DNA of 64,000 nucleotides, from contig OZ037773.1 of the NCBI GenBank assembly GCA_964035545.1, forward strand, positions 4,943,251 to 5,007,250. Direction: 5' to 3'. Every line of letters starts with the position of its first letter. The first letter of the stretch is position 1. The DNA comes from Bugula neritina. Its lineage: Eukaryota > Bryozoa > Gymnolaemata > Cheilostomatida > Bugulidae. Below the pieces are notes generated by a model. That model saw only the letters and a list, made by a program, of their open reading frames with translations. It did not search any database and was not told the DNA's origin. Shown here in pieces: positions 11,301 through 63,746 of the stretch. Position numbers and translations under genes: made by a program.

Positions 11301-14300
11301 CGTGGTGAACAAAGTTGCTGGTGTAACGTCTTGTAGTAATTTCCATATACTCACCGGTACCGTAACCCACAATCTCAATGGCTCCATCACCTCAAGTTCA
11401 CCGGTTCCGGATGTAACATCAAAGTATGCTGGGGAGGTGAAAGCAATCTCCCAGGTGGAGGTAACATTATCGGGAGATCCATCGGGGAAACCCGATCTCT
11501 GGGATACGAACACATCTGCGGTTATGTCTCTAATCTTCCTCTGTAAAAGATATATAAATGTTCTTTGCTAAGTGATATACATGTGTTTCAAATAATGTAT
11601 TATATTGTTATATATATAATATGATATATGTAATATATAATATAATATAATATATAATATAATATATAATATAATATATAATATAATATATAATATAATA
11701 TATAATATAATATATTATATAATATATAATATAATATAATAATATGATGAAGAATATAATATTCCGAAGAATATAATATTATACAATACATGAATTATAT
11801 TATTAAATTTTTTAAGTGACACACCTTTGGTAGGCATTGGAAAAAAACGAAAACAATGAACAGATGCCTGTTTCAAATCACTTGATAAACCTGTGATGCA
11901 CCTTCTAGTTTAAGAGTATTGAACAGTTTTATAATCTTATGTTATATATAAATTTTTTTTATTTCTCAGGTCAGCAATCTAACTCTTATAGTAAGATAGT
12001 GCAACTTATATTAGCTAAAACCATGCTTTAAAAATACTTTTTTCATAAATAGATGAAACTAACCACTCACAGTTGGATTTACAAAAATATATTCAAATTA
12101 CAAACTTAGAAATTAAAATAGTATTAATTTGATTATATTTTCAAAATATTTTCAACAATTTCATAAAAATATCAGTCAAATAAAATCCAAATACTTGATT
12201 CTTTATGACAAATATTTTGCTTTTTTAAACAACTACTTTAAAATCTTTTAAGACTATGGCCCTTCTTTAAAAAATAAGAGTTTGACATTATGATTTAAAT
12301 GAATACATTATATGTACTGTATTTCTGGATTTAATTAATTAATAAAATAGACCCTGTTATAAAATTTATATTAAAACAAGTTTTTTAAAAGCAAAAAATA
12401 AATTGAAAACTTTTCATAGGCACTATAGAGAGCCAACACATATAAACCAGAAAGTTAGTGATTTATATATTTTATCTGATAAATTTGCTTGACCCTGATT
12501 TAATTTGGTTTATTATTACTGAAGAAAAATATAGCTATAGTGGACAGATTGCTACTCAGTTTGTATTATATGTATCTCCTTATGAGTCACAGGACAGACT
12601 GACCTGTATGAAAGACAACTCCCAAATTATTAGCATTTGTACAGATAAATAGGTAAATTAATAAAAAAATACTACATAGCAACAGTTTTACCTGCCCAGT
12701 ATAAGTCCAGTTCATGCCAGCAGCTTTTGTGCCAAATCCAAAAAATTCCTTCACCGTTTTCATTCGAACATGGTTAGCATCAGTAGTCGAGATAACATCA
12801 AAATTTCCAGACTGGCTGAGTGGTTTAACCGAACAGTTACCCAGCTCCATATCCATAACGTAGGCGACACCTAAACATACAATGCACTTTGTTGTCACAC
12901 TGTCTTAGTATGTAAATTAGTTTGTGAAGGCAACAAGCTTGGTGGCTAAAATTTCCGATTTACTTTTCCTATAAGCACGCACTAGAAACGTATATTCTTG
13001 GATAGAATTCGGAGTTTGAACTTAAATCACTTCTGACTCATTTTTAGGCAAATAAAACCAATGCTGTATAACGTGACTCGTGCCATAAACACTTTAATTC
13101 ACTGCACATTTTTATTAGGTATGCCCAAAATTTTGCATCAATTCTATGCAGTTAGTTTAATAGGTCAGAAAAACTTTCTGGGTTATCACACATCTTGTGA
13201 ATCTTCAATAATTTTTTCAAGCCAAATAAAATTGAAAGTTGGTAACTTTTGAATCAAGATGTTTATGCTTTTCTAAAAATACAGAATCATACTAGAACAT
13301 TAAAAGACAAATGTCTATGATATATTTAAACTTATTCAGAACTGTAATGATAATATTATTAAATAATTTCAATATGCCAGCATTCTTTTACAAAACTTAG
13401 CTTATAACAAAATGTTGTAGCTATAAAACTTCAAGTTCGAAAATGAAATGTTTTAGTGGCTTCATAATTTTAGCTAATTTTAACTAACTCAGTTATACCT
13501 AAACAAAAACTGGAAGACTACCCACTAAGCGGTTTCATGCAAAGCCTGCAATGAGATGTTATCTGGATGGCCAATCACAAGATGATGACAAACAACATGA
13601 TATCGCCCAATCAGGTAATATTTACCAATCATGTGATAGTAATATTGACCAATCACAGAACTTCGAGATTACCTGTCAGAAAGTCATGGACTTCACTGAT
13701 TGGTCGCTGAGCACCTGGTGTGTTATAGCCTAAGAGTGTTCCTTTTGGTGTGTAAATGTAATTAGAGAGGTTGAGGGTAGAGTCGTAGTATTCCTGAAAT
13801 AATAAGACAAATTTTGATAGTTTCTTATTAAGTCACAGAGATAAACAAATCTAAATACGCATGGAAAAGCTTTATGTTATACTGGCATTTATTTATAATC
13901 TATCTTCAATTAAACGCTCTGACAATAGCATGGTTCCTTCAATGCAAAACTCTAACATATTGTGTGAGAATGCACGCCAATTATGTAACTGTAGCAAGGA
14001 CCCTAAGGCTAAAGTGTAAAATAGTTTTAGCTTATGACGGTAAGCTGCAATCTGCTCTATCTTTATATCTGAAATAATAAAAGCGCTTTCAATGTGAATC
14101 AATGACTGCTTTGATGCCAATTGCTTTATAGCTGATGGCTGCTAAACAAAATGATGGACTAAGATATTGATCAAAATAATAGTATAGTGTGTACATTGCA
14201 AATGCAAATGAGGGTAAAAAAGAGAAGACAACTCGGTAACAGCTTAAAAATTATTTTGTATAATAATGAGCTCCGTCAATAATATCGTTAATTAATTGTT

Positions 14301-17300
14301 TGTTTTTACTTATAATTGTTTAATTAAAGCTCAGCAAATGCTTGTAAACACGCTCAGCTAAAACCCACTATAAAAACTGCTATAGCATACTTTAGAATGA
14401 GTCATTGCTAGACGGAATAAATATCTAAAAGACTCCAGGTTTTCAAGACACTAAGCAAACTTCCAAAAACCTAAAATACCTTAATAGTAGTAAACAGTCC
14501 AGTGTCTTTCGCCACTTGTTGGATGAACTCAGCTTCAAAAGAGAAGTAGCCATTTGCAGCTAATGGTGGAATATCGTGGGGCTGAGATTGTCCAATATCA
14601 AAGTTCTTCAGGTGTGGACACGCAGTGCCAGCTGGAATCTGAAAAAGCACTCGGCTTTGATACTTTTTAATAAATTATTCATATTGAACTACTAATTTGT
14701 AATTTTGAATGTTAGAGCTACATCGCAATTAATATTTTTCCTCAGAACTAAAATTAAATATCTGATGTCATAACAAACTACAATAAATATCAAACATAAA
14801 TAAGAATATTGATATGATCCTAGCCTATATTGCTGTTGATTAGCTACATGATATTTGCATGCATTATGGTTAGGACTATATATAACTTATACTATGGTTA
14901 TCATGAATGTATATTATATAGTAGTTGTGTATGTGTGTGATTGCTTATTTGCAATATAAATTATAGGTATAACCATCGTATAAGTGATATATGTGTAGCC
15001 ATCTGCTGTATTTATTTCAAACTAAAACGAACTATAGGCTAGAAAGTCATATTCATATACCGAAAAAAAACAGATCTCAATTATAGTAATGATTAACTTT
15101 AAAAACATAATAATTATACTGTATATGCACACAGTTTACACTTACTTGGAAATATGTTGCCTCTTTTGTACTTATTGATGGTTTGAAACTATTAAAGGTG
15201 TAGGTGTGATCAATATCTCGAATATCTCCGAGTCGACCTTTAACCTTCAACATTACTGGTGTGGGATTGTTTGCTCCTGCAGCCGGTGTCCAATCATCTG
15301 AATCTGAAGATAATGTAGAATGTGTGCAGTGCAGTACAGTTCAGTTCAGTGCAGTGCAGTGCAGTGCAGTGCAGTGCAGTGCAGTGCAGTGCAGTGCAGT
15401 GCAGTCCAGTGCAGTGTAGTGCAGTCCAGTGCAGTGCAGTGCAGTGCAGTGCAGTGCAGTGCAGTCCAGTGCAGTGCAGTCCAGTGCAGTGCAGTGCAGT
15501 CCAGTGCAGCATAGTATAGTATATATTGCAGTATAGTATAGTATATATTGCAGTATAGTATATGATGTAGTGTAGTATAAGATGTAGTGTAGAATAAGTT
15601 AGTCACTAGTGTAGTGTAGACTATAGTATAATTTTGTTTTATAACTTTTTAAATGCGTATATTTGAAAAGTTATAAAACGCCTGAGACTTATTAAAAAAG
15701 TAAAACCGTGTATATTATTTTATTATTTTAGAGTAGGTACCTGTGAAATACCATTCAGCCGTGACTGTGGCATCTAAGGCTGGGATATAGTGACAGTCCC
15801 ACCATTTCTCTACTTTGATTCCAAAGTCCAATTCTTCTTTTCCCTAAAGTAAAACAAAAGATATCAACCTATTTCTATTGATTGCACATTACATGCATCA
15901 TTTGTTATGATCTTTCAAAATATGCTATCAATATCATTACAAATGTCGATTATATGATTTGCAAAATATTAAAATTTGAATTATAATTGTGTGTCAATTG
16001 TCGTGATTGCAATTCAATGAAAACTAGTTTTGTGAAATCAATTATTTTTCAAATTAAAATCATGTTTTAAAAACTCTTGAGTGAGACCGATGGCTAGACT
16101 ATGTATAGTAGATATAATATATGAATATCCTTGAATTACCTTATAGACTGGTGGACAGACTATGTATAATAGATATAATATATGAATATTCCTATATTAC
16201 CTTATAGACTGATGGACAGATTATGTATAATAGATATAATATATAAATATTCCTGAATTACCTTATGGACTGGTGGATAGACTATGTATAGTAGATATAA
16301 TATATGAATGTCCCTGAATTACCTTATAGACTGGTGGCAGACTACGTATAATAGATATAATATATGAATATCCCTGAATTACCTTATAGACTGGTAGATA
16401 GACTACGTATAATAGATATATTATATGATTATTTTTGAATTACCTTATAGACTGGTAGATAGACTACGTATAATAGATATAACACATGAATATCTCTGAA
16501 TTACCTTATAGACTGGTGGATAGACTATGTATAATAAATATAATATATGAATATCCCTGAATTACCTTATAGACTGGTGGATAGGCTGGATTTATTAGAA
16601 AAGCAGACTTGGATGTGAAACCACTCTGTGAGTTGACGTCATCTCCAAATACAAAAGTGTCAACTCCTCTGCCATCCAGCTGGGAGGCGTTGCAGTAAAA
16701 TGTGTCTGTTTAACAGAAATGTTGCAGTAAAATGTGTCTGTTTAACAGAAATGTTGCAGTAATATGTGTCTGTTTAACAGAAATGTTGCAGTAATATGTG
16801 TCTGTTTAACAGAAATGTTGCAGTAAAATGTGTCTGTTTAACAGAAATGTTGCAGTAATATGTGTCTGTTGAACAGAAATGTTGCAGCAATATGTGTCTG
16901 TTTAATAGAAATTATTCAACTTTTACTCAAAAGTTTACTGTAACATATAAACAGAATAATGAGATATAAATAGAAGTACACTGAAGTAATACTTATATAG
17001 ACATGCTATACTACATCTTTGCTAAGCATTTGAATCTCTTCCTAAATGATTTACTCATTTATCAAACTTCTAATTTTGACAGTGTTTAGAGTATTTTAAA
17101 ACAAGTATATTTTAAAATGTAAAACACAATTTTCTAATAGTTAAATCAATCTGCAAACTTTAAACTTATGACAATTGCAATTGCATAACTAATATAACAT
17201 TCTAATACCCTGCACTGTGTATTAGAATACTCTGTTCAACTATACTAACTATATAGATGTTATATATATGTATAAATCTTATTTTAATACTCCAGAAATA

Positions 17301-21716: not shown

Positions 21717-45833
<24,117 letters not shown>

Positions 45834-47502: not shown

Positions 47503-50500
47503 CTAGAGCATTTTCCGTATCATATAGTTTAGGATTCCGCCATTCCGGAAATATTCTAATTCTACTTCTGTGTCAAACCTGGCCAGCACTTGGAACTCCT
47601 TGCCAGAGTTTACCTGCAGAAGAAATATTCCACACCAAAATAAAGGAGGAGTTGTAGAGAAAACAATACACTGTGGATCTATAAAAAATATTTAAGTAAA
47701 TCTGAAAATTGCATTTAAACTTAAAAATATGTTTATATATTTAAGGCAGCAGCGTATGGGTACATAAAGATGGCAGCATTGAGTATATAACTTATCATGT
47801 TACTTTAAAATATAATATTACAACTATTAATTCCCATTATTTCAGAAATGTAATAATATAGGTTACGTAATACACCAGCACATTTAGTTTGTGGCTCATC
47901 TTAAATCAGAAGTTGTGAGATCGCAGGACAGGAATGAAACTAGGTGTTATTTCTCTTGAGTGTTAGCAGACAACACAAATTAGTTCGCGCAGCCATCTCT
48001 GTACTAGAACTATAATTAGCTCAGATCTTATTAGGATATTACCTTGACAGTGACCAGCTGACCAGTGGTCAAGTCTTTAGGAATGTGAATGGAGAACTGC
48101 TCTTTACCAGTTAGCCCGAGTGACTCTGCCGTGTCACCTGACTGATACTGGAGAGGGATAAGGCCCATCCCCACCAAGTTACCTGTGCAAAAGTAAAGAT
48201 TAGAGGCTATATAATCTCAGTTGTTCAATGTTGAAATTGTGAGCTATGCAAATTGTATTCTGACTAGGAATGCTATAATGAAAGCCGCTAATAAAATTAA
48301 TTCCGAGATAGGATAATTTGCAGTATTGCAGAGCATAAATCACATTATGCAATACTTTCAATGTGAAACAGCAAAAAGCGTTACATGTAACTGCATGAAT
48401 AAAAATCTCAGACTGAGAAAACTGTCAACTGTAAAACATTGACAGCTTGCAGCTCTACTTACTTCTGTGGATTCTCTCGTAACTCTCAGCAATAACAGCT
48501 CTCACACCCTGGAGGAAAGGACCCTTAGCTGCCCAGTCACGGCTACTTCCTGATCCGTACTCTTTGCCGGCGAGTATGATGACCTGATTGTCCTCCGACT
48601 TGTATCTCTCGGCAGCATCAAACACGTCCATCTGCAACACAACACACACTACTGCATACAGTACAGCATACAGTATACACTACACACTACTGTATACAGT
48701 ATACATTACAGCATACAGTATATACAATATACACTACACACTACAGTACATACAATATACACTACACACTACAGTACACAGTACACACTACGGTATACAG
48801 TACACACTACGGTATACAGTACACACTACGGTATACAGTACACACTACGGTATACAGTACACACTACGGTATACAGTACACACTACGGTATACAGTACAC
48901 ACTACATTATAGTACATACTACGGTATACAGTACACACTACGGTACACAGTACACACTACGGTACACAGTACACACTACGGTACACAGTACACACTACGG
49001 TACACAGTACACACTACGGTACACGGTACACAGTACACACTACGGTACACAGTACACACTACGGTACACAGTACACACTACGGTACACAGTACACACTAC
49101 GGTACACAGTACACACTACGGTACACAGTACACACTACGGTACACAGTACACACTACGGTACACAGTACACACTACGGTACACAGTACACACTACGGTAC
49201 ACAGTACACACTACGGTACACAGTACACACTACGGTACACAGTACACACTACGGTACACAGTACACAATACGGTACACAGTACACACTACGGTACACAGT
49301 ACACACTACGGTACACAGTACACACTACGGTACACAGTACACACTACGGTACACAGTACACACTACAGTACACAGTACACACTACACATTACAGTACACA
49401 GTACACACTACAGTACACACTACGGTATACAGTACACACTACAGTATACAGTACAGTACACAATACAGTGCATACTGCAGTTGACACTACATTATACACT
49501 ACGGTATACACTGCATGCTACAATATACACTAAACCAAACAGCATACATTATAGCATACACAACACACTCAACAGTATACACTATAGTCTATACTCTATA
49601 AACTATACAATCAGTATACAGTATAGACTACACTAAACTACACTAAAGCTGTTACACTAAAATACTACAGCTACTACAATACAGATACTACACTACAGCT
49701 ACTACAATACATATACTACAATACAGATACTACACTACATATACTACACTACAGCTACTACAATACATATACTACACTACATATACTAGACTACATATAC
49801 TACAATACAGCTACTACACTACATATACTACACTACATATACTACACTACATATACTACACTACATATACTACACTACATATACTACACTACATATACTA
49901 CACTACATATACTACACTACATATACTACACTACATATACTACAATACAGATACTACACTACATATACTACACTACATATACTACAATACAGCTACTACA
50001 CTACATATACTACACTACATATACTACACTACAGATACTACACTACATATACTACACTACATATATTACAATACAGCTACTACACTACATATACTACACT
50101 ACATATACTACACTACATATACTACACTACATATACTACAATACAGATACTACACTACATATACTACACTACATATACTACAATACAGCTACTACACTAC
50201 ATATACTACAATACAGATACTACAATACATATACTACACTACATATACTACACTACAGATACTACACTACATATACTACACTACATATACTACAATACAG
50301 ATACTACACTACATATACTACACTACATATACTACAATACAGCTACTACACTACATATACTACAATACAGATACTACAATACATATACTACACTACATAT
50401 ACTACACTACAGATACTACACTACATATACTACACTACATATACTGCATTACATAGTGACTACATACAATTGTCAATGTCTTATGAGACAGAAAAGAGCA

Positions 50501-53500
50501 GCTGTTATAAACGTAGATGTGACTATATCGATGCAATTCAGGTCAGGTGATTACCTCATCTCCACTGGGCACGTGCGTAGTCTTGGGGCCGGATTTAGAT
50601 GCCAGCTTGTTGACGAGTCTGATGTTAGCAAAGGTTCCTCTGGCCATGATGTCATCATTACCACGTCTCGCTCCGTATGAATTGAAATCTTTGGGAGTCA
50701 ATCTAAAGAGTAACCAATCATTCAATAAAATAAAATACCACAACAAAACTGCAGTAAAATCGTAGAATGAAGTGAAAAAGCATTTCTATCTCCAGACATA
50801 TAATAGCCGAGTTTAAAGTTTTATTAAATCGAAATTCAAGATCTAAATAATAGATCATATAACCATTATAGAGCAAATCCAGAGAGTTGATTGATATGGA
50901 AAAACATATGCCATGGCATTTTTATTGTCAGCTCCGGACCCCCAAAAATTGCAAATTATATTATAAAAATGAGGATTCAAATCAGTATTTAATTGGTATG
51001 CTTGCAACTAATTTTATATTTAAATTTACTAGATCAAATTTTATAAAGCAATCCTACTCCAGCTCAAAACTCAGACTACTCAATACATGATCAATCCACT
51101 ACTAGAGTATTCCACTAAAAAGAATACTTCACTAACTAATAGAGAGAAAGGTGCAGATTTGTAACATAATCAATAAGTAATGTAAAGTTGTTTGAAGTAC
51201 TAGGACATTGAGTTTTAACTGTTTACACAACATATTAGCAACCAACCCTTTACTAGCAAGATATCTGGCAGCAGGACTAGTCCTAGCGATACTTCCTGCA
51301 GGTGAAATGTGGTCAGTGGTAACAGAGTCTCCTAGATTGAGGAGAGCGTATGCATTCTCTACCTGCCTGAATCCTGGGGCATCTTTAGTCTAGGAGATAA
51401 AATACAGTCCTGTCACATACTTCTTCAAACAACTGAGGAAGCAAAAGAATTATTAACAGAAACTCAAACGACCCAACAGAATTATTCGCTAAGACTCTGT
51501 GGAATTTTATTGGTCAGATTTGAACCCCAAAATCACACAATTTATTTTATAATGCACATAATTCTATATTACATCATGTGATAGAAACATGCCAGTTTTT
51601 AATAAACAATAAACATGTTGAAAGAATTTTCAAAAAATATGAACTATGTTGAGTTTTCTGGAAGCAAAGGCACTTTGAAAACAATTGGCTGAAGCTTGAG
51701 ACACTATTCGTTCAGTAGGATGTGAAGAAAAGGATTTGCTCCTCACTAAAAACAGAGCCACACAACAACCTGCCAAACACATTACATCACCTTTCACTAA
51801 CAGCTTACATGACTATTTCACAGCTGATAATGTCAAATAAAATTATCAGCTAAATAGATCATGTGACCCAGCTTTATCAGCCTTGTCTACCATGTGAATG
51901 GTGCTAAGTACTAAACAGATAGCACCCACTAACTACAGCAAGAATACATGAATTGTCAAAGTTATTTGTTAAATTTCTCACACAATTATTCAATGCATTT
52001 CTATTTTAGCACCGAAACAATGCAAGGCATTACTGTAGGGTCTAAATTTGTGTTGCTTTTCAGACTTTAAGACTAAATTTTAATTATAAATCATTACACA
52101 CAATGAAAGTTACTATATTATATTAATAACTTGTTAAAAATTGTGTTGTTATTCAGAAATTAAGACTAAGTTGAAAATTACACATCATTCTGTCTGGAGA
52201 AAGTGACTATATATTCACAACTTCTGCGTTCTATGAACATATTGCAATGTCCTCAAGTAAACTAGTACTACCCACTAGTGTGTTTGATACAGAGACAAGA
52301 ACCAAGGCTATTACCATGTTGTCAAAGAAAGGCGGGCTCTTGATGTAAGTTGAGGAGACGTCCCATGGATACAGCTGACTAGACGGCACGGCTAGGCTGT
52401 TCCACTTCTCATTCCCAGCCTAAAGGTAATATAACAAGAATTATTATAATATAATATAATAATATATATCAATAATTAACTACCACAGTATTGTATTAAA
52501 TATTTAGCTGGAGAGCTCAAAGTAATATTGAAAACGTCTGTTATTAAGAAAAGATATCAAAAGGGCAAACTTTATTTTCAAGAGTTGTCTTCTACTGCCA
52601 CTTAATTCAGAACATGCACCAGTATCATTACTTATTATAATCCTTGCTTTATGCAAGTTTGTCAAATAACCAGCAAGACTCAATTGCTGAAGTCCCAGAC
52701 CATTTCAATTTATAAATAAAACTGACGAGTTATAAGGTTTGCTGTATCTGACAAGGAAACTATTGATATGAATGCGTTATTATAGAGGAACAAACTATGT
52801 AATCAATACACATATTATATAAGAATTTAAATTAGCCTCTTCAAGTCTTTTTGTACAGAGTTCTCCTAGGTAAAGAAGATAACTCTTAAAAGTTTAATAA
52901 TTGAATCACAACTTTTTAATGAAAAATGGCTAGCTGGGAGAACTGCTAGCTGGAAGAAGAGCTAGCTGGGAGAAATACTAGCTGAGACAAGAGCAAGCTG
53001 TGACAAGAGCTAGATGAGATATTCCTGTGACAATGTAGACTCACCGTGATAGAGCCGTATACTTTGTTATAAAGAGCTGGCACTATGACTCTCTTCTCTA
53101 CGTCCTGAATCTGCTCTCTCGTAGGCCAGATATCTCTCAGGAAGACTGGCTTACCATCTGGACCCTCACCTAATACCATTGAAAGACAATCGTGGAAAAT
53201 TGGTTACAGTTACACAAGCCTATTTTATATTGTCCGTATTACTATTTTGTATATAGTATTACTGTATATATAATACAATTATGGTAAAATGTGCTTTAGT
53301 ACTACTATACTACACATAGTAATAATATATACATATTATTACTATGTATACCATAGTTCAACTATTTATAAATTTACTATCTATAATAGTATAACTATTT
53401 AGTATGAACTATGTATATATAGCTATACAATATACATAGTAATACTGTATACACAATGGTATAGTTACACGACAATATACTTTATATATAGTAATACTAC

Positions 53501-56500
53501 ATCATACATAATAATATAGGATAGTATTGTTACACTAGACTACAATATATGCTGCATACACAATATAATATCATAGTATAGTATGGTTACACCACACTAC
53601 AATATATAGTAACACTATATACAGTATACTGTAGTACCTAGAGGAGTTTTCTCAAAGTCTATAGAGACAGTTCCAGCAAGAGCATAGGCTACGACTAGGA
53701 GAGGAGAGGCTAGGTAATTAGCTCTAGTCAAGGGGTGAATACGTCCCTCAAAGTTTCTATTACCAGACAATACTCCACAGGTTACCAAATCACCTGAACA
53801 CAACAGAGAATATCATGGGCACATCTTTACAAATATAATTGTTGACTGCAACCAGCTGATCATCTAATTCTTAGCTATGTGGTGCAGATAATGAGATGAC
53901 TACTATCCAATAGTTTTTTCCCTAAACAAAATGAAGCAACAAATCAAAGCATATATAGAAAAGTATTTTCAAAACAACTGATTAATGAGCATTAAGTGAT
54001 AAAACATGATATTTTCAGTATAATACAACTGATACATCACACTGGGGAAAGGGGTTGCTAGAAAGACAAACCTTTCTCAATAGCCTCGCTGACAGGATCG
54101 GGCAGAGGGCCGGAGTTGCCTATGCACGTCATACAGCCGTACCCAACAATGTCAAACCTACAACAGACGGTTATCAGACTATATAGCTACAAAACACTGT
54201 GTGCGGCGCTACTTAATCTCACACACATGTACATGAATTGAAAGGCTTGGGAGCAGTTTCAAAGATTTAGTTAAAAAGACGGTTTCTAAACTGCATGTGG
54301 GTTTGTGAGCTATAAAACTGTTTATCATCAACAAGCTTGTCCCTGCTTATGTTTAACACAAACAATTCGCTACGATCTTTCTAACCAACATTTTAGTATA
54401 TCCACATGAGTGAGGAACCTATTTTAGACAAACAGACAGAGCTAGAAACTAAACCTAGATAAACACGACATCACATTTAATTTGCAAAATAAATATGCCT
54501 CTAATTAATAATTCACGGATATGATATGTTTAGTTTATAATTTAGACTATTGGTGAACTTAAAATATTTTATCAAATTGAATGAGTGAAGTTCTGGAAAA
54601 TACAGACGTAACATTTTGTCCAATAGGAACAGAGATCATCCAATAGGTTCATCACTTGTAATTTGAGAAAACAAAATCGAAACTAGCTCGATTTAGCTAC
54701 ACAAATTTCACCAGTATTTTTGCCAACTGTCACAAAACGAAAAAGAAGCTCCACAATTAAACTTCAACTTTAAACTCAAGAAAAATATTATTAAAAACTA
54801 ACGGTGCACAAACTACTAGAATATTGTGAATAAAGTACCCGAGTTTCTCCATGAAGGGAGTGACTCCACTTTCATTGAGGTAGTAAGTTACCACCCCGCT
54901 TCCGGGACTCAACGAGGTCTTGATATAAGGCTTCACCCCTAAACCCTTCTCTACAGCATTCTTAGCCATCAAACCTACAACCAACATATGAATACTGTAC
55001 GAGTTATTTGATATATATATAAACACCACCCAACCCTGACCAACTATTATGAGGGAAGGCTAAACAGAAGGCCTTTCTTGGCATTTACAATCTAACAAGG
55101 TCATTTAGCTGAGCTTGCAACAGACAAGTTACTGCAGATGTGACAGACTATTGTATCATAGCATTCTCATCTATACTTACACACTTCTACAGGAACCTAA
55201 AACCAGTGCTTTTATTAACAGAAAAGCTAGAATAGTACAACTCCATTACCAGTTGTCACAGAAGTTATGTTAAACATTAGAAATACACACACTCGAGAAT
55301 CTATAGATACTTGATGTAAAGGGCAGACAACTACACAAGAACACACTACATTTACATCAAGATATCTACACAAACTCTGTACAATAATCCCATAGACCGA
55401 CCTGCGCCCAACATAACCGACGGGTTGCTGGTGTTGGTGCAACTAGTAATGGCAGCTATGACAACGTCTCCGTGTGCCAGAGTATACTCCTGTCCCTCGT
55501 ACACAAATGGCACTCTTGTAGACTGCTTTTCTGATGGTATAGCAAACCCCTGTAAAAACAAAAGAGTGTAGTAAACCCCTATGATAACGAGGAGTGGAGT
55601 GAACCCCCTATGATAACAAGGAGTGTAGTGAACCCCCTATGACAACAAGGGGTGTATGAATCCCCTCCAAATCTCTTACAACAAAAAATGTAGCCAGCTC
55701 AGTAGAGATGAAAATAGCACATACCTGCAATAAAAAGGCCTTAAGGAGTCGTGAAAAACTAATCAAATGGTAGAAAATATTTAGATCAGATGTGTACAAA
55801 CAATAGCATAGCTATGTTGTTAACTTGCTTGGTAGGAACTAGATTTGTTACTCAAACATTGTGAGGGTCACTAGGAAAGCCCCAACACCACCGTAGCCTG
55901 AGGCCCATACGCTGTGGAGCTTACTGGAGACATTGCCTTACCTTGAAGCCGATCTTATTGTTGAGGCAGCTGTTAAAGTCTGACATCATTTCCGACACTG
56001 GCACCTTGTCGTGGGGCCGTTTGGGTCCAGAGCAGCATGGGACAACAGAAGACAGGTCCAACTCTACTACCTGCAACAGTACCTTCCTATTGTATGTATT
56101 CTATACTGTACAGTACCTACAGTAGCTCTTACTAGGACTATTCTATGAGTGATGTGTATTCAATCAGAAAATAGATAGCAATACCTCACAGATTGCTGAA
56201 ACGTTTCAGCTTCGATTCTACTTCATAGTTGTATCATAATAAAATTTTACAGTAGGGAGCTTTAATAATATGTTCAGTAAGATGTTCTCATATTTCTTAG
56301 GAATAGTTTAAGAGGCTAAAATCTTGAAAAAACATTATCTAAGAATGCTATCCCCTAAACTAAATACAAGTAAAACTCAACAGTTTCATCTCTTTTTTAT
56401 GTAGAAATTATATGTTTCAAACATTGATGTTATTTCATATTAAGAGAATAATTTTCCACTGAGGAATAAAACATCCAGCTAATTGTAATATCTACAGAGA

Positions 56501-59500
56501 GCCCACCTTGCTGAACACCGGGTCCTCTCCACTATTGGTGTAGTCTCTAAACATACGGTTAGCTTTCAGATACGCCTCAATATACGCCACTTTCTCCGCG
56601 TCTCTACCTGCAGCGTATATACACAGACTACGCTGTGACATCATACCAGGTCTAATAGTCAGCTTACCACAGAAGAGTACAGAAAGTGAGGCAGAGAGAA
56701 AGTTGCACAATTACAGCATGTAGCAGAGTGGACAGGACTTCATGTATCTTAGAGTTACGGGCAGGCGACCAGCCAGCCCCCAATTGAACTTAGAGAAATC
56801 AGATTCAATGCAACTGTGCAACAAGTCAATAGCAAAGTTTGGAAATTTTTTCACCATAGCATGTATATAGCTGCTACTTATAGTATTGAAAAAATTGACA
56901 GACCTGTCTGGTTGAGGTAGGAGATGGTGGCAGTGTCAGGAGGGAAGTATCCTACGGTAGCCCCGTACTCTGGACACATGTTGGAGATGGTGGCTCTATC
57001 AGCCAATGAGAGAGCGGCTACACCGGGGCCAAAGAACTCCACAAACTTTCCCACAACTCCGATCTGTCGCAAGTGCTACATCAACAAACATATTCAGTAT
57101 AGACCTTCAGTTAAACCTACTGTTTCAAACTCACATGTTTTCGGTAGAAATTCAAATCAACTTACCTACACAATAACTAAACAATGATTACAAACACTTC
57201 TATACATAAGCTTATATAAGCATTTTAGACTTTGGTTACAATGCAAGTTTTCCAACAAAAAATGCATTTTGGCTACACGAGAGCACAACTTCAAAAATAA
57301 TAAACAATTAAATGTTTAGAACAATATTTAGTCAAATATAAAGTTCAATCAATTTAAAAGAATAAAGCTCATTGATTTGAATTTAGCTGTAAATCCAAAA
57401 AAATTAGCCCGATTACCACAGAGTAGAACGTAGACTGGGTACCAGAGAACTAACCTTGGTGATGGTGAGCACGACATCTGTGGAGGTCGACATGGGGTCA
57501 AGGTTACCGTGTATCCTGTAACCTATGACCTCTGGCAGCACCATGGAAATAGCCTGTCCCAACATGACAGCCTCCGCCTCAATACCTGTTAGCAAAACAT
57601 AACATCAGTTAGGGAAGGTGAAAACTTGTCCTTGTGAGAAACCCCTGATGGAAAGGGTCTTTTTTAAATTGGGCTAAGGACTTATTCATATGTGACAAAG
57701 GAGCAATTAATTATAAATGGATACTCTTCTTAACATCACCAATGACCTTTGTCAGGGTTGGAACCCATGACTTTGTGTTTACTAGGCAAACACTCTAACC
57801 CCTAGACCAGGAGTGCTGAACTTGATGGGCATAAAGTGATATTAAAAAAAACATCAGTAAAAAGTCAAGATTTGTTCACAAATTCGATATAAAGTTTCTA
57901 CACAATGTAAATATAAAGAATATAGAACAAATGAATACCATAGAACAAAGATAATATAAAAAACATGAAAATATGCAACACATTAGACTAAGACTCATTC
58001 TTACACTTTGTGAGACTCCAACCCTTGGAATGTATGCCAGTCACAAGCTATAATTAACTTCATAAAGTTACATTGTAAACATCAATTTCACAAACATATA
58101 ACATGTTTAACTTATCTTATTAGCTGGACTGTTGGAGTGACACCCAGCAAATTAAAACCGGTTTCGATTTACTAAATATACAAATTACATAGACATACAC
58201 AGTGGTATAGTATAGTATAGTATAGACATACACAGTGGTATAGAAGGATCTGTTTATACAAAACATATTATTAAGGTGTGTATAACACTCGAGTACAAAA
58301 CCTTATAGTGGCTTTCTAGAAGATTCCAACATGATGGGAATTCTCATCAACAACTAAAAACCTCTCATATCTATTCTAGAAGGTTCCAAACACATGACTC
58401 ACCGCCAACGCCCCAACCAACGACACCGAGGCCATTTATCATAGTAGTGTGGGAGTCAGTGCCCACTAAGCTGTCTGGATACAGCCAATCATCTTCACAG
58501 AACACCAGGCGAGCCAGGTACTCCAAATTCACCTGCAAAGTTTCAACACCATTGCTATGATAGCGGCTATCAGCACATTTGTAGGTTACAGGGTTCTGCC
58601 AGGTATTGTTTCTCACCATATTCAAAACTTATTGCCATGATGTTTCAACTTGTTTTTCATTATTTTGCTCAAAAATTAACTAATATTTTAGGAAGTGAAG
58701 ATTATTCTCATTAAATGAGATCCACAATATCTTTCTCGACTGTAAAAAGGTATATATACTGTACACTGTAACATTATAAACATAGCAAAGACCATTTTAT
58801 AACAGTTTAGGAGTTACTTCCACATCATATTAATTATACAGTAGTTATGTAGAAGCAGTCCAGATAAATGCTAAAAATATACATCTTTAGCCTATGCAGC
58901 TGCATTTAATACTAAACATATTTTATGGATCATCACTTTTTTACTTAAGAAAAAAATCCGAATTATTTCAATCTACTTTCCATAAATATGTTGTCAGAAA
59001 AATTCTTTCTATGTTAAAGGAGGCCAAAGGCGTTGTACAGACACATGTGAAGCTGAAGTATACTGTTTTCAGCCCATTATAGAGTAGAATATATATTTAG
59101 ACTGTACAGAAAGCTGTGCTGAGTAGAACTAATAAGTCTTATGCCCAAAAGAGATACAAAAAGATGATGGTGGTAGGCAAACCTCTGATAGAGCACCCAG
59201 CAGGTTTGTATTGAAACACAGTGCAGTCAGGTATGCTGGTATGAAGGCAACTTATTATAACAGGTATCATAGTTACACAGGAAACGGGTTTGAGAGACCG
59301 GTATATCCGTTCATATGTGACATCAAATCAGCATACATTTCATACTAGGCCAGCAACAGCCTCGACTCTGTATTTCAGTACAGCAGTGAATGCAAAATAA
59401 TTTACTCTCACACAAGTTTATAATCACCATTCCTGTGAGAACCCCTGATAGAAAGGATTTTTGTTAAAGTGGGCTGAGAACTTATTCATATGAGGCACAG

Positions 59501-62500
59501 GAGCAATTATAACTAGATGCCCTTCCTAATATCACCAATGGCCTTTACTGGGGTTTGAACCCATGACTTGGTGTTTGCTAAGCTAAACACTGTAAACCCT
59601 AGACTACAGCTGCTCCCTGCAACTTACTTACTGACTTAGAGCTTACTGAAAATAATTACAACTATAGGAGAAACACAAGTGTGGCTGCAGAGTAAAGTAA
59701 AGCTGTGAAAATTTACCTGATGAACAATACCACTGCCAGGGGGAACAATTAACATATTCTTGAAAGCCTTGGCTCCCCACTTGAGAAAGTTAAACCGCTC
59801 CTTATTTCTTTCAAACTCCATGTCTTGGTTCTGCTTCAAGGCATCGGCACTACAGTACAAATTAAACAGTTGATTAGAACTAAATCTACCATAGAAACCA
59901 GAGAAACTTGTGCGTTTAGCAGCAGACGTTCTGTAAGCAGCTGCACATTTGCTTTTACAAATGTGTGTTAACAAAATTAATGCTGGATATCAAATATCCA
60001 AAGCAGAGAAATAGTAAAAGTGGATCTTCCATCGTTGTGTACCAACCCGACAGATCTTTCCTTGTGAAACGGGCACAGGGGATCGCAGACCTTGTTCTCA
60101 TTACCGGGCATCCGACAGCAGACTTCCCGACAGCACCCGGCAGCACCCTTACACGGTGTTCTAGGCCGCTGTCGGCTGGGTGAACCTTTCGGTGAAAGAC
60201 GAACATTGTCTAGTGTGTTTTGAGTATTTTCTAAGTTGCTTGCAGTCAGTCTGAGTAAACTAGAGTCTGAGTGAGACTGAGTGATGAGATCTTTACATGA
60301 CTGTCTCTCACATTCCCCCGAGTCACTTCTCTCACAAAGCGGGGAGGGGTACTTGCTGTTACTTTTATATTGAGGCCGTAGCCTTATAGGACTTTGTGTA
60401 GGGTCGATATTTGATAGGCGAGGTCTATTTGGAGATTGTCTCCCCGGTGCTGAGTAGTTTTTAGCTCTGTGTTGTGGACTGTTGCTAGACTGACCACTTC
60501 CATGGTTTCGCGTTGAGTTGAGCAAACTACAACGAGAAACCATACAAAGTGGTCAGTTAGTGCACAGCTCACACACAGCTCTGTCAAGTTTCTCTTCAAA
60601 AAGTGCCAGCTTTGTGGAAATTCAAGAACTTTTATTGTAAAAAACTAGCTACTGAATTGAAATTATGAAACAATAACAAGAATGCACCTGGTGAATTCAG
60701 CTAACTCAAAACACTTCCCTTAATAGAGACTTTGCATTGGTTATGCAGAGAACCTGTCAATGTTACATCCTTAAAGAATCAATTTTGAAAACAATTACAG
60801 CAATAAACTATATTTAAAACTATGTTGCTGAAAATCACACATTACGGCACAGATGAGAGAGAAGGTATTTGTGCCAACTACATGAATCATTTTAGATGAA
60901 AACTGTAAACTAGGAAAATCCTGTTCCTAGCATATACTTAAATAGTATTAGATCTCGTGGTGAATATCCATCTCCAGAGGGTAAAGTGCACCTCCCCTCT
61001 CGTAAGAGATTCAAATTAGCACACAACTATTATTCATGAATGCATGCGCTTTGCTACTATTTGATTCTATTGAGAGGTTGCATTCAGTTGTTAAACCTAT
61101 ATTATTTAGACATTGGACGAAGCCACGTGAATAATCTGTGCAAAATATGCGTACGTGACCTGTTAAGAGTGATAAACTACGTTGTCTCAGCTGATATGCC
61201 AGGCATGGACAGTCCACTTATCCACAGATAAACGCATCACACACAACCTGTAAGCCCCTGTAAGCCGGTAACCCCAGGCCCAAAGCTACTCCAGGTGATT
61301 CTGGGCCCATGATATGCAGTATTAGCACTGGAGTGTATACTAACAACAGGGTATCTAAATCATACTTGCGAGCAGTGAGAAATTGAGAAGTTATGTTCTC
61401 AAAATAAATTCAACCCATGCCCAAAACCAAAATCTATTACAAAAATTAAAGACCTTAAGCTATTAAAAATTTTTCCACTACTACTTCTAAGTGTCACCTG
61501 GGTGACATCAGCTATCATGTAGGCAATGGGTTGTTAGCATTGTTTAACTGCTACCCTAGTACTACTTTTATAATTAAAATAATATGTATAACAGTGGAGA
61601 CTCAAAAAGTTTGAAACTTACGGGATTGCAATACTAACTTCCCCAGTTACATGTAATTGCATCATTAGACTGGAAAATATAAAGTTACCAGTGGCCTTTA
61701 AACAAGCAACAAAAGCCGACACATTTAATATAAGCAGAAGATGAACAAATTGTCTTACTACACTCATACAATATAACTTAAATTATTTGCGATAAAAAAG
61801 AAGGAAAAGGTGTTTTACTATACTGACACTTACTGGTGGAGTGTTAAGAGGTGGTGGATTGTGGGAGTGAGAGGGGGACTATATTTTACTATACTAGCAC
61901 TTTTGACAAAATAATTTTTCAAATTGTTTAGTTGAAGTACATATACTAAAACATCTAACCCCTAGGAAATTTGTAAAAAAACATTTGTGTAAATTTGCCA
62001 ACAGGTATACTAGAGTATAGCCCTAACTTCTTACCTGCGGGCTACATCCACTTGCACTGAGTGATCTATAACCAGGTCAGCTGGACAAACAGGATTAATC
62101 TTTTCAGGGTCACCCCCCAATCTTTTAACAGCGTCCCTCATTGCTGCGAAGTCCACAACTGCTGGAACTCCACTAAAAGAGAAATATGCATCAAATATAT
62201 ATCAGTATCTAGAACGAGGCTTTAAATATTTTAAAATTTTCATTTCGATAAAAAATCGCTGGCTTTGGATAGAAAACTACCTTTCATGTTCCGTTGCACT
62301 AAAAGCATGTTGTGAGTATAAAGTAAAAATAAAAGGAAAAAAACAGTTACTACAGTAATTGTTTCAGCCTGATGCATAACATAATATTTTACAACTACGG
62401 ATGGAAAAACCACATAAATAGTCAAAAAGGTGATGATGAATTATTTTCAATTCAAGGATTTGAAATAACATAAATCACCACCGATTTGACTTCATTTTAC

Positions 62501-63746
62501 CAACTAACCTAATATAACAATACAAAAAACTTAAGCACGCAAGAGCTGGGCCTAAGTATTTTTACTTTAGGTACTTAGAAAAATTGAGCAAATTTGTTAA
62601 CATAATGACTTGACTCGCTCAGCTATTTGATTCAACTTGGATATTTTAACTGGATTGCTACGAATTTAGGCAAGTAAAATTCTGAAACAGAAAAATTACT
62701 ACAAAATTTGTATTATAGACATACGCAAATATAACTAAAAATTAAAAATATTGACTGGCATCACAGGAGTATAGGTTAATTTAAATAAACTTAAATGAAT
62801 TTAAGTAGTTACTTGAATTGACTTGGATATGACTTAAATTTTTCTCCACCTGAACCATGACTTGACAAAAAACTCAAGTTCATCCTAACTCTGAGCTCTG
62901 ACACTGGTAGGCAAATTAATAATGTTAAAAGTCAAGTGTGAGGTGAGTGTAGCTAGTACAGCTAGCTAGCATAAAAGTGTAGCTAAAACAGGAGTGTAGC
63001 CAGTGTAGGGGTAGCTAGTACAAGAGTGTAGTTAGTAAAAGGGTTTAATTATTATTATGAGTGTAACAATTACAAGCGCAACTAATAAAAACATGTTGGC
63101 AACAGTAGTGTTCAGTGTTAGTAGCAGTAAGCCCAGTACTACTTACGTAAAGCCCAGTACTACTTACGTAAAGCCAAGTACTACTTACGTAAAGCCAAGT
63201 ACTACTTACGTAAAGTCTTGTAAAATGACCCTGCTAGGTTTGAAGGGCACCTCTGTACTGTTACTCTGATTTTTCTCCCAATCCAATATCTTCTTAACGT
63301 CATCTTCCTTTACAAGAAAGTTGTCACAGTTTCTCACAGCTGACTCTAGCAGCACTCGTACAGAATATGGTAGCTTATCTGAGAAAATGAAATAGAAAAA
63401 TAAAATAAGAACTCATAAATAAAATAAAATAAGAAAAAAAATAGTACTCAATTCAAGTTCACAAAGTACTAGTAATATTAATTTCAGAGTCTGAAAAAAT
63501 AAAATGAAATTTTTGACAAAAAATTGGCAACTTTGTCGTAACAATCGCTTAGAAATAACACGCTGCAGGCAAAAAAGAGAAATATTTTTCACATGACAGA
63601 CCCTACAGTAGCGACATTACACATTCACATCACTATAGAACACTCACCATATCTATCATCAGAGAGTTTAGTTAGGTTAAAGAATTTATATTCCTTGCCA
63701 TTACTGGTGAGCGAATCCTCGCACGTCTTATATGGATTATTACCAC
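47503..63746 (-). CDS. Cytosolic aconitase / iron regulatory protein 1 (5' end outside window)
   Basis: It isomerises citrate and isocitrate when it holds a [4Fe-4S] cluster and, in animals, binds iron-responsive mRNA elements without it. Twenty exons join in frame: 63648-63746, 63210-63378, 62035-62172, 59717-59849, 58403-58532, 57455-57585, 56904-57075, 56507-56607, 55942-56070, 55402-55549, 54839-54974, 54072-54157, 53638-53793, 53045-53169, 52315-52419, 51247-51389, 50555-50702, 48463-48631, 48043-48182, 47503-47613. They give about 889 residues, like IRP1; only the start Met and a few residues are missing and should lie past 64000. Motifs seen: [27 protein letters not shown] (first cluster Cys), [10 protein letters not shown] (other two Cys), [28 protein letters not shown] and ERIHRSN. 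The protein is cytosolic, with no mitochondrial signal seen. An extra IRP2-like exon is listed separately. It is IRP1-type without that exon. Confidence 0.95.
48640..50455. repeat. 1.8-kb compound minisatellite in an ACO1 intron
   Basis: From about 48640 to 49490 there are about 40 copies of a 19-bp unit (acactacggtacacagtac). After a short transition, from about 49670 to 50455 there are about 50 copies of a 14-bp type unit (tactacactacata, with cagatac/cagctac variants). A 298-codon open frame on the plus strand (48588-49484) arises because 19 is not a multiple of 3 and the unit lacks stops; it is not a gene. Confidence 0.9.
53220..53630. repeat. Degenerate AT-rich repeats in an ACO1 intron
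   Basis: Imperfect 'tatacatagtaatactgtat' type repeats fill most of the intron between exons 53638-53793 and 53045-53169. The last copies reach the donor at 53638. Confidence 0.6.
54072..54157 (-). other. ACO1 exon with two of three iron-sulfur ligands
   Basis: It encodes [16 protein letters not shown]; the two Cys correspond to human IRP1 Cys503 and Cys506 by family alignment. Together with the Cys in SCTNTS (exon 55402-55549, equivalent to Cys437), the cluster site is complete, so aconitase activity is expected. Confidence 0.93.
55563..55675. repeat. About 30-bp tandem repeat in an ACO1 intron
   Basis: Three to four copies of 'gtagtgaaccccctatgata' plus acaaggagt, just upstream (in gene sense) of exon 55402-55549. 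Confidence 0.75.
57620..57815 (-). mobile_element. tRNA-derived SINE, copy 2
   Basis: Reading the minus strand: A-box-like ctggtctaggggttagagtg, B box gggttccaaccc, body and tail as in copy 1. It lies in an ACO1 intron in the same sense as the gene. Confidence 0.75.
59435..59617 (-). mobile_element. tRNA-derived SINE, copy 3
   Basis: Reading the minus strand: gggagcagctgtagtctagg head, B box gggttcaaacccc, body with attaggaagggcatctagtt, tail with aaaaatcctttctatcaggg. It lies about 100 bp from an ACO1 exon, in the gene's sense. Confidence 0.75.
60047..60526 (-). CDS. Candidate IRP2-type regulatory cassette exon within ACO1
   Basis: This 480-nt segment (160 codons, no stop) sits between ACO1 exons 62035-62172 and 59717-59849. 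Its acceptor is cgttgtag|tttgctc and its donor gtcgg|gttggtac; the same donor type closes exon 51247-51389. Its phase at both ends matches the flanking exons, so inclusion or skipping both keep the frame. The N-terminal part (about 105 residues) is rich in Ser, Arg, Pro and Asn and looks disordered. The last part holds [16 protein letters not shown] and LCPFHKE. Vertebrate IRP2 has its 73-residue insert at exactly this point, with LPCRG, further Cys and LCPFH, the last being its haem regulatory motif. Homology is an inference from position plus motif. Alternatives are a constitutive exon, an alternative first exon (an ATG lies 17 nt upstream of the acceptor) or a chance open frame; the Cys/LCPFH match makes chance unlikely. 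Confidence 0.75.
62173..63209. other. ACO1 intron with degenerate 'gtgtagctagtacaggagt' repeats
   Basis: No further exon is seen in this intron of about 1 kb. A diverged repeat of about 25 bp occupies 62940-63040, followed by the donor-carrying 21-bp repeat. Confidence 0.5.
63131..63214. repeat. 21-bp repeat multiplying a splice donor of ACO1
   Basis: Four head-to-tail copies of gcccagtactacttacgtaa(a). Each reads ttta c|gtaagtagta on the minus strand, a strong donor. The outermost copy (63194-63214) contains the real exon end at 63210 (VILQDF then AC). Confidence 0.9.

What the first reader, a model, noticed from the sequence alone, without database searches (positions are those of the whole stretch)
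60047..60526. IRP2-type insert exon inside an invertebrate IRP1-type gene
Seen: an open, in-phase, 160-codon segment with acceptor and donor in the ACO1 intron between the ...VDVAR and ADALKQNQ exons. Known: vertebrate IRP2 (IREB2) differs from IRP1 by a 73-residue Cys/Pro-rich insert at the same junction, generally treated as an IRP2 novelty and linked to iron- and haem-dependent turnover. Inferred: the insert may predate the vertebrate IRP1/IRP2 duplication, with one gene able to make both an IRP1-like (skipped) and an IRP2-like (included) protein. The cassette is about twice the vertebrate length because of a Ser/Arg/Pro-rich N-terminal part.
Basis: partly seen in the sequence, partly recalled or inferred. 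Interest (0 to 1): 0.92.

Follow-up and report, generated by a model that had tools for sequence, protein, structure and literature searches.

The report
Ancient optional exon behind IRP2's insert
A gene for an iron-sensing protein in what looks like a bryozoan carries an optional-looking extra exon that matches the piece thought to set vertebrate IRP2 apart from IRP1; the same piece occurs in IRP1-type proteins of many invertebrates and a coral, so it seems older than the vertebrate gene pair.

Summary
On the minus strand, 60526..60047 is an open 480-base, phase-2 segment in one intron of an IRP1/ACO1-type gene (20 exons modelled, 63746..47503). The animal is bryozoan-like (core 88% identical to Watersipora) and no second IRP gene of its own was found in its assembly. 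The segment ends in CPFH plus six residues. Of 180 retrieved proteins, 54 have an insert at this junction with CPFH (52) or CPYH (2), always six residues from the junction; none of the other 126 has that motif anywhere. Named carriers span seven other phyla, including a coral. Human IRP2 has the same motif and spacing. Sea-urchin isoforms X1 and X2 differ only by the 56-residue insert. So the 'IRP2-specific' insert looks like an old cassette of IRP1-type genes. An ark-clam paper cloned an insert-bearing IRP1 without linking it to IRP2. Limits: no transcript from this species; outside CPFH the bryozoan insert is poorly conserved (profile search not significant); heme/redox control is inferred from mammalian IRP2, where it is disputed; vertebrate duplication is favoured but another rooting is not rejected.

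The parts
62035..62172 (-). Constitutive exon upstream of the cassette (..GVPAVVDF...VQVDVAR), ends in phase 2 with donor CAG|GTAAGA
   Evidence: tblastn with human IRP1 and splice modelling
60047..60526 (-). Cassette exon, 480 bases, phase 2 at both ends; codes for a 161-residue segment (SLLNST...KERSVG, split end codons included)
   Evidence: open frame, donor rank 1 of 146, CPFH six residues from the junction as in 54 of 54 other inserts with the motif
60076..60153 (-). Cys-rich stretch [26 protein letters not shown], the part that aligns with human IRP2 CRGQTTCRGSC
   Evidence: phmmer against 6vcd; local alignment, weak taken alone
60064..60075 (-). CPFH motif (the heme regulatory motif of IRP2)
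   Evidence: CPFH in 52 and CPYH in 2 of 54 other inserts, in none of 126 other rows
59717..59849 (-). Constitutive exon downstream of the cassette ([15 protein letters not shown]...), starts in phase 2
47503..63746 (-). Host gene: IRP1/ACO1-type, 20 constitutive exons modelled in the window; a likely first coding exon (MS|G) lies 356 bases beyond the window's end
   Evidence: all three Fe-S cysteines and 66 of 66 IRP1-type columns kept

Best explanation
60047..60526 is an optional (cassette) exon of a bryozoan IRP1-type gene and is homologous to the 73-residue insert of vertebrate IRP2. Shown by sequence: it is open, phase-neutral, has splice sites, and carries CPFH exactly six residues before the same junction as inserts in IRP-type proteins of seven other phyla and in human IRP2. 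Inferred: skipping gives an ordinary bifunctional aconitase/IRE-binding IRP1; inclusion adds a flexible Cys-rich loop in domain 1 ending in the heme-binding CPFH motif, which lets heme or oxidation tune RNA binding or turnover of the same protein. In vertebrates the two forms were divided between two genes: IRP2 kept the insert and lost IRP1-type residues, IRP1 lost the insert. My estimates: homology and age 0.93; used as an exon in this species 0.8; heme or redox sensing as its job 0.45.
For: Same junction and spacing: 54 of 180 retrieved proteins plus the window have CP[FY]H in an insert at this junction, six residues from its end in 55 of 55; a pattern on raw sequences finds the spacing in 53 of 54, the exception (P0034) having M for L further on; 0 of 126 other rows have CP[FY]H anywhere. 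The last insert residue is G, C, W, R or S in 55 of 55, the residues whose codons have G in second place, as a conserved phase-2 boundary after G would give (my inference). Human IRP2 (6vcd) has CPFH-x6 at the junction (my count). A coral has it (P0123). Isoform pairs: Strongylocentrotus X1/X2, 0 mismatches and one 56-residue gap; Amphiura X3/X4, 1 mismatch and one 51-residue gap; Amblyomma X2/X5, 3 mismatches and gaps of 34 and 20. A cloned ark-clam cDNA codes 942 residues, with Ser138-Gly189 'absent in vertebrate IRP1s' (PMC8947174 section 16). Frame and donor statistics. Chance of CP[FY]H from the cassette's composition: 3.8e-6 at the fixed place, 6.1e-4 anywhere. One IRP gene of its own in the assembly, and a ferritin gene with an IRE-like hairpin (C bulge, CAGUGU loop) 79 bases before its ATG, so a target exists. 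Heme: the IRP2 peptide TPILCPFHL binds heme, KD 0.82 +/- 0.69 and 1.84 +/- 1.53 uM (PMC10377097, table passage). Insert predicted disordered: pLDDT under 50 over residues 129-193 of an annelid homologue.
Against: No RNA from this species. The listed bryozoan-type proteins, Watersipora isoform X2 (P0066) and P0030, lack the insert, and no bryozoan protein with it was listed. A profile of other inserts gives the cassette E 0.71, second to an unrelated ORF at E 0.49. Against human IRP2's insert 80 of 2000 shuffles score as high; a scorpion insert 130 and an annelid-like one (P0044) 355 of 2000; only oyster, brittle star and amphioxus (4 each), the annelid P0025 (7) and coral (8) are clearly better than chance. 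The acceptor is weak and codon usage is not frame-specific. The window lacks the PNPGGG-like start. Octopus P0126 has PNPGGG but no CPFH; crab P0124 has the long insert but no CPFH. The hairpin's folding energy is ordinary (53 of 200 shuffles fold as well) and Rfam's IRE models found none. No hemerythrin domain, hence no FBXL5, was found in the genome, a search that split exons can defeat. A control peptide AAAACPAAA also binds heme, KD 3.77 +/- 1.58 uM. Mammalian IRP2 without the 73 residues is still degraded in iron-replete cells (PMC2267205, passages).
Confidence: 0.72

Rival explanations
1. The cassette is a dormant or decaying copy of the ancestral exon in this lineage: homologous, but no longer spliced in, with the CPFH end left over.
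For: Weak acceptor, no PNPGGG, low similarity outside CPFH, no bryozoan protein with the insert among those listed.
Against: 191 codons without a stop, reached in 0 of 5000 simulations; best donor of the intron; exon-like GC; CPFH and spacing intact.
Confidence: 0.15
2. The exon is real and used, but as a disordered linker with a structural or phosphorylation role; CPFH binds a metal or another protein and heme is irrelevant.
For: The insert varies from 28 to 297 residues (leaving out the truncated P0034) with little conserved sequence and is predicted disordered; the mammalian insert was found dispensable for iron-driven decay (PMC2267205); a plain CP peptide already binds heme.
Against: The one near-invariant piece is the IRP2 heme-binding motif, Cys and His included (PMC10377097).
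Confidence: 0.4
3. IRP2 is an ancient paralogue lost from invertebrates, rather than a vertebrate duplicate; the insert is then older still.
For: AU test does not reject the rooting with human IRP2 and lamprey outside all other animal IRPs (p 0.432; human IRP2 alone 0.285); PMC8947174 draws IRP2 as a separate branch.
Against: Vertebrate IRP1s, human IRP2 and lamprey group with SH-aLRT 99 under two models; that rooting would place vertebrate IRP1 beside all invertebrates and need many losses.
Confidence: 0.12
4. Chance open frame in an intron with an accidental LCPFH.
For: Frames of 160 codons arise in 12 of 5000 simulations; the profile search does not single it out.
Against: Motif, spacing, phase, donor and exon-like composition together.
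Confidence: 0.03

Closest known systems
Human IRP2 (IREB2) 73-residue domain, PDB 6vcd
   Same: Junction, Cys-rich middle (PCRG..C..C), LCPFH, six residues from CPFH to the junction
   Different: In IRP2 it sits in a protein that differs from IRP1s at 66 conserved columns; here the host is IRP1-type at 66 of 66, the insert is about twice as long and lacks PNPGGG
Strongylocentrotus purpuratus cytoplasmic aconitase isoforms X1/X2 (P0031/P0154)
   Same: One IRP1-type protein with and without an insert ending CPYH-x6, otherwise identical
   Different: 56-residue insert with PNPGGG; CPYH in place of CPFH
Ark clam SbIRP-1 (PMC8947174; passages and section 16 seen)
   Same: Cloned cDNA of an IRP1-type protein, 942 residues, with a segment Ser138-Gly189 absent from vertebrate IRP1s
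   Different: In what I saw the authors treat the segment as part of the aconitase domain, do not connect it with IRP2, and report IRP2 missing from that genome
Porites harrisoni (coral) P0123
   Same: Insert SQTQLFDPGGNWPKKDDPCPFHLLPIDC at the same junction
   Different: 28 residues, with only the CPFH Cys and one at its very end

Membership tests
IRP1 / cytosolic aconitase (host gene) | Three Fe-S cysteines (human C437, C503, C506) | tested here: met
   All three present
IRP1 / cytosolic aconitase (host gene) | Aconitase and IRE-contact residues | tested here: met
   R269, S371, K379, T438, N439, R536, R541, S681, P682, R713, S778, R780, D781, W782 identical; R699 is K and N685 is S, as in some other animal IRPs. 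List from PMC4184891 and PMC12896564 passages and partly recalled
IRP2 | Insert in domain 1 at the R135/A136 junction with Cys cluster and LCPFH | tested here: met
   Same junction, CPFH-x6
IRP2 | PNPGGG at the start of the insert | tested here: not met
   Absent from the window; [ND]PGG present in 43 of 54 other inserts
IRP2 | IRP2-type core residues | tested here: not met
   0 of 66 diagnostic columns IRP2-like, 66 of 66 IRP1-like (the columns were chosen with two near relatives among the 36 invertebrates)
IRP2 | Iron- or heme-dependent degradation | not testable with these tools
   Needs protein experiments; a hemerythrin-domain search for FBXL5 found nothing but is inconclusive
Alternatively spliced cassette exon | Length a multiple of three, matching phases, splice sites | tested here: met
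   480 bases, phase 2/2; donor best of 146, acceptor weak
Alternatively spliced cassette exon | Transcripts with and without it from this species | not testable with these tools
   No RNA data; a near-relative contig, P0030, gives the skipped form only

The most novel reading that the evidence does not exclude
Before corals and bilaterians parted, animals had one iron regulatory gene whose splicing chose between a plain Fe-S-sensing IRP1 and a form with an added heme/redox-sensing loop; many phyla still run that switch from one gene, and the vertebrate IRP1/IRP2 pair is that splice switch turned into two genes.
Probability: 0.45. Interest if true: 0.86.

Novelty: new variant of a known kind. 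Interest (0 to 1): 0.74.

Why it matters
The 73-residue insert is described as 'unique' to or 'specific' for IRP2 (PMC2267205, PMC2854138; passages), and its role is disputed. If it is an optional exon of the ancestral IRP1 gene, IRP2's origin becomes a case of splice forms split between duplicates, and the part that evolution kept, CPFH with its Cys and His, points to which of the disputed residues matter. It also offers animals with one gene and both forms (sea urchin, and perhaps oyster and bryozoan) in which the insert's effect can be measured with everything else equal.

Tried and rejected
Chance frame: rejected on phase, motif spacing, donor and simulations. Other donors: of seven GTs near the end three keep the frame, and only 60046 has a reasonable donor context. 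Retained-intron artefact as a general explanation of the database inserts: five vertebrate IRP1 models (P0129, P0132, P0149, P0153, P0157) and P0152 have long unrelated sequence at this junction without CPFH, which shows what artefacts or private exons look like. A profile-HMM search did not single out the cassette. A search with a short mollusc insert alone found 2 proteins, one of them the query. Rfam found nothing in the window; genome-wide searches for its two IRE families found nothing, but nothing rang in the control genomes either. A hemerythrin-domain search of the assembly found nothing; inconclusive.

Of 180 proteins, 117 have at most one residue at this place, 1 has six, 8 have 12 or more without CPFH, 54 have the motif.

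Literature: ten searches, judged by their listings and by passages of eleven papers opened, gave no paper that links an invertebrate IRP1 insert with IRP2's; the library lacks most subscription journals, and one likely paper (PMC1894933) is not held.

Sampling: searches matched 1361 and 2668 proteins but each lists only the best 120, chosen by likeness to insert-bearing queries, so 54 of 180 is no estimate of how common the insert is, and absence from one isoform is not absence from the gene.

Full report
What is there. The window's minus strand holds an IRP1/ACO1-type gene. With human IRP1 as a guide, 20 exons from 63746 to 47503 were modelled, giving 888 residues with no frame break. The first coding exon is beyond the window; the best candidate, MS|G with donor CAG|GTGGGT, lies 356 bases further on in the assembly. 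In a tree of 109 proteins the core falls with Watersipora subatra and an unnamed contig (support 100); identities are 88.1% and 88.7%, so the animal is very probably a bryozoan of or near Watersipora's order. A search of its assembly with the Watersipora protein hit only this gene and one small contig, C286, which reads as an aconitase only if TAA and TAG are taken as Gln and so looks like a ciliate contaminant. No second IRP gene of the animal was found; further aconitase exons on C4, matched by the domain model but not by the IRP1 query, are presumably the mitochondrial enzyme.

The finding itself. Between exons 62172..62035 and 59849..59717 lies a 2185-base intron with an open segment 60526..60047. 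It is 480 bases long and starts and ends in phase 2, so skipping and inclusion both keep the frame. Only one of six frames is open. Its donor is the best of 146 GTs scored in the intron by a matrix from the gene's own donors; its acceptor is weak, 44th of 134. Simulated sequence reached 160 open codons in 12 of 5000 trials and 191 in none. Composition is exon-like, but codon usage does not pick out the right frame.

Relatives. A search with the insert and its right flank and one with a brittle-star insert and both flanks gave 180 distinct proteins. 54 of them, 51 from the first list and 3 new from the second, plus the window, have an insert with CPFH or CPYH at this junction; the distance from the motif to the junction is six residues in all 55, checked on raw sequences in 53 of 54 (the odd one, P0034, has the same six residues but another residue further on). 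None of the other 126 has CP[FY]H anywhere. Named carriers cover Mollusca, Annelida, Arthropoda (ticks, a mite, spiders, a scorpion, a millipede, crustaceans), Echinodermata, Hemichordata, Chordata (Branchiostoma, Petromyzon) and Cnidaria (Porites); with the window, eight phyla. In 43 of the 54 the insert has [ND]PGG, as in human IRP2's APNPGGG. The last residue of the insert is G (33), C (10), W (8), R (3) or S (1): the residues whose codons have G in the middle, as expected if the exon ends in G in phase 2 (inference; human IRP2, with E there, does not fit).

Both forms from one gene. Strongylocentrotus X1 and X2 differ by one 56-residue gap and no mismatch; Amphiura X3 and X4 by one 51-residue gap and one mismatch; Amblyomma X2 and X5 by a 34-residue gap there, a 20-residue gap elsewhere and three mismatches; two Ornithodoros turicata models on different contigs differ by 75 residues there, seven mismatches and two small gaps. 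These are database gene models whose RNA support I did not see. Contigs of 3.4-3.6 kb that code whole insert-bearing proteins (P0012, P0033, P0044) seem too short for a gene with such introns and so look like spliced transcripts, as does the insert-free, bryozoan-like P0030 on 3.1 kb (inference). The ark-clam paper reports a full-length cDNA with a 2829-base reading frame for 942 residues and a segment Ser138-Gly189 'absent in vertebrate IRP1s', which in the parts I saw it does not compare with IRP2; it states that IRP2 is missing from that genome. The earthworm cDNA codes 890 residues (PMC4184891, passages), and the razor-clam protein's numbering (Cys443, Cys509, Cys512) leaves no room for an insert (PMC12896564, passages; inference). 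Sponge work reports IRP1 only (PMC7034838, passages), and the Dysidea protein P0147 has no insert.

How weak the rest of the match is. Outside CPFH the bryozoan insert has diverged. A profile of the other short inserts and the human one gives E 0.71, no better than an unrelated ORF at 0.49. Alignment scores against human IRP2's insert are reached by 80 of 2000 shuffles; against oyster, brittle star and amphioxus by 4 each, annelid P0025 by 7, coral by 8, but a scorpion by 130 and P0044 by 355. Homology therefore rests on position, phase, frame, the motif and its spacing (chance 3.8e-6 from composition at the fixed place, 6.1e-4 anywhere in the insert), not on overall similarity.

IRP1 or IRP2? 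The core is IRP1-type. Of 386 columns at least 97% conserved in 36 invertebrate IRPs and equal in human IRP1, human IRP2 differs at 66; the window has the IRP1 residue at 66 of 66, lamprey P0045 at 56, with 9 IRP2-like. Trees put vertebrate IRP1s, human IRP2 and the insert-bearing lamprey protein together (SH-aLRT 99 in both), and lamprey with IRP2 (98 and 95), under two models. An AU test does not reject a root on the IRP2 side (p 0.432 and 0.285), with one long plant outgroup. Either way the insert is older than the IRP1/IRP2 split.

Targets. The same assembly has a ferritin gene (C3) whose start codon is preceded, 79 bases upstream, by a hairpin with an unpaired C, five paired bases and a CAGUGU loop, the usual make-up of an iron-responsive element. 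A pattern for that shape gave this one hit in 89 kb, both strands, of the two ferritin loci, the 5 kb beyond the window and the window. Its folding energy is unremarkable (53 of 200 shuffles fold as well) and Rfam's IRE models did not report it.

How it probably works. AlphaFold on the annelid P0025 gives pLDDT under 50 for residues 129-193, which take in the insert, in a protein of mean 76.4: a flexible loop from domain 1. The conserved end is the heme regulatory motif of IRP2; its peptide binds heme near 1 uM, a plain CP control peptide near 4 uM. One review ties heme oxidation of the domain to degradation through HOIL-1 (PMC10340119, passages), while PMC2267205 cites several groups that find the domain dispensable for iron-driven decay and HOIL-1 not required. 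I take the most likely reading to be that splicing decides whether an otherwise normal IRP1 also responds to heme or oxidants; a plain disordered linker is nearly as likely.

What is new. A mollusc IRP1 with this insert is in print, but in ten searches (listed under Tried and rejected) I found no statement that the IRP2 insert is an old cassette of IRP1-type genes. The window adds Bryozoa and a long, divergent version of it.

Noticed in passing
L014 1725 (minus), assembly contig C3 near 30619725: IRE-like hairpin (C bulge, CAGUGU loop) 79 bases upstream of the ATG of a ferritin gene in the same genome.
   Followed up: partly
L001/L002, assembly contig C286 (67,711 bases): An aconitase frame of 561 codons that is open only with TAA and TAG read as Gln (16 such steps): probably a ciliate contaminant contig in the assembly; its aconitase has no insert at this junction.
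   Followed up: partly
window 48644-50468: About 1.8 kb of minisatellite (19-base and 14-base units, 42 and 57 copies) in the intron between exons 50702..50555 and 48631..48463; it makes long repetitive open frames on the plus strand that are not genes.
   Followed up: partly
window 16084-16912, 28827-29275, 36422-36806: The same pair of tandem repeats (61-base unit, then a 32-base unit) occurs three times, about 8 to 13 kb apart, as if a segment had been duplicated.
   Followed up: no
window 12587-12904 and 33552-34088 (minus); 31910-32233 and 40249-40563 (minus): Paired similar open frames (..YVMDMELGNCSVKPLSQSGNFDV.. / ..YVRDVELGNCTVYPLSKSPNFDV....YTITYNIFNFNEEEPDAW.. / ..YTTKYNIFNFNEDEPDPW..) suggest tandemly duplicated genes; three of the four were scanned and had no Pfam match.
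   Followed up: partly
P0037, P0040, P0047, P0051, P0052, P0063, P0064 (crustaceans), P0054 (Aplysia): The insert has grown to 228-297 residues in these crustaceans and a sea hare while keeping CPFH-x6.
   Followed up: no
P0126 (Octopus), P0124 (Portunus): Inserts with the usual start but no CPFH: possible loss of the motif or annotation errors.
   Followed up: no
window 63129-63215: Four copies of a 21-base unit that contains the donor CGTAAGT, so the donor of exon 63378..63210 lies in a tandem repeat that copies it.
   Followed up: no
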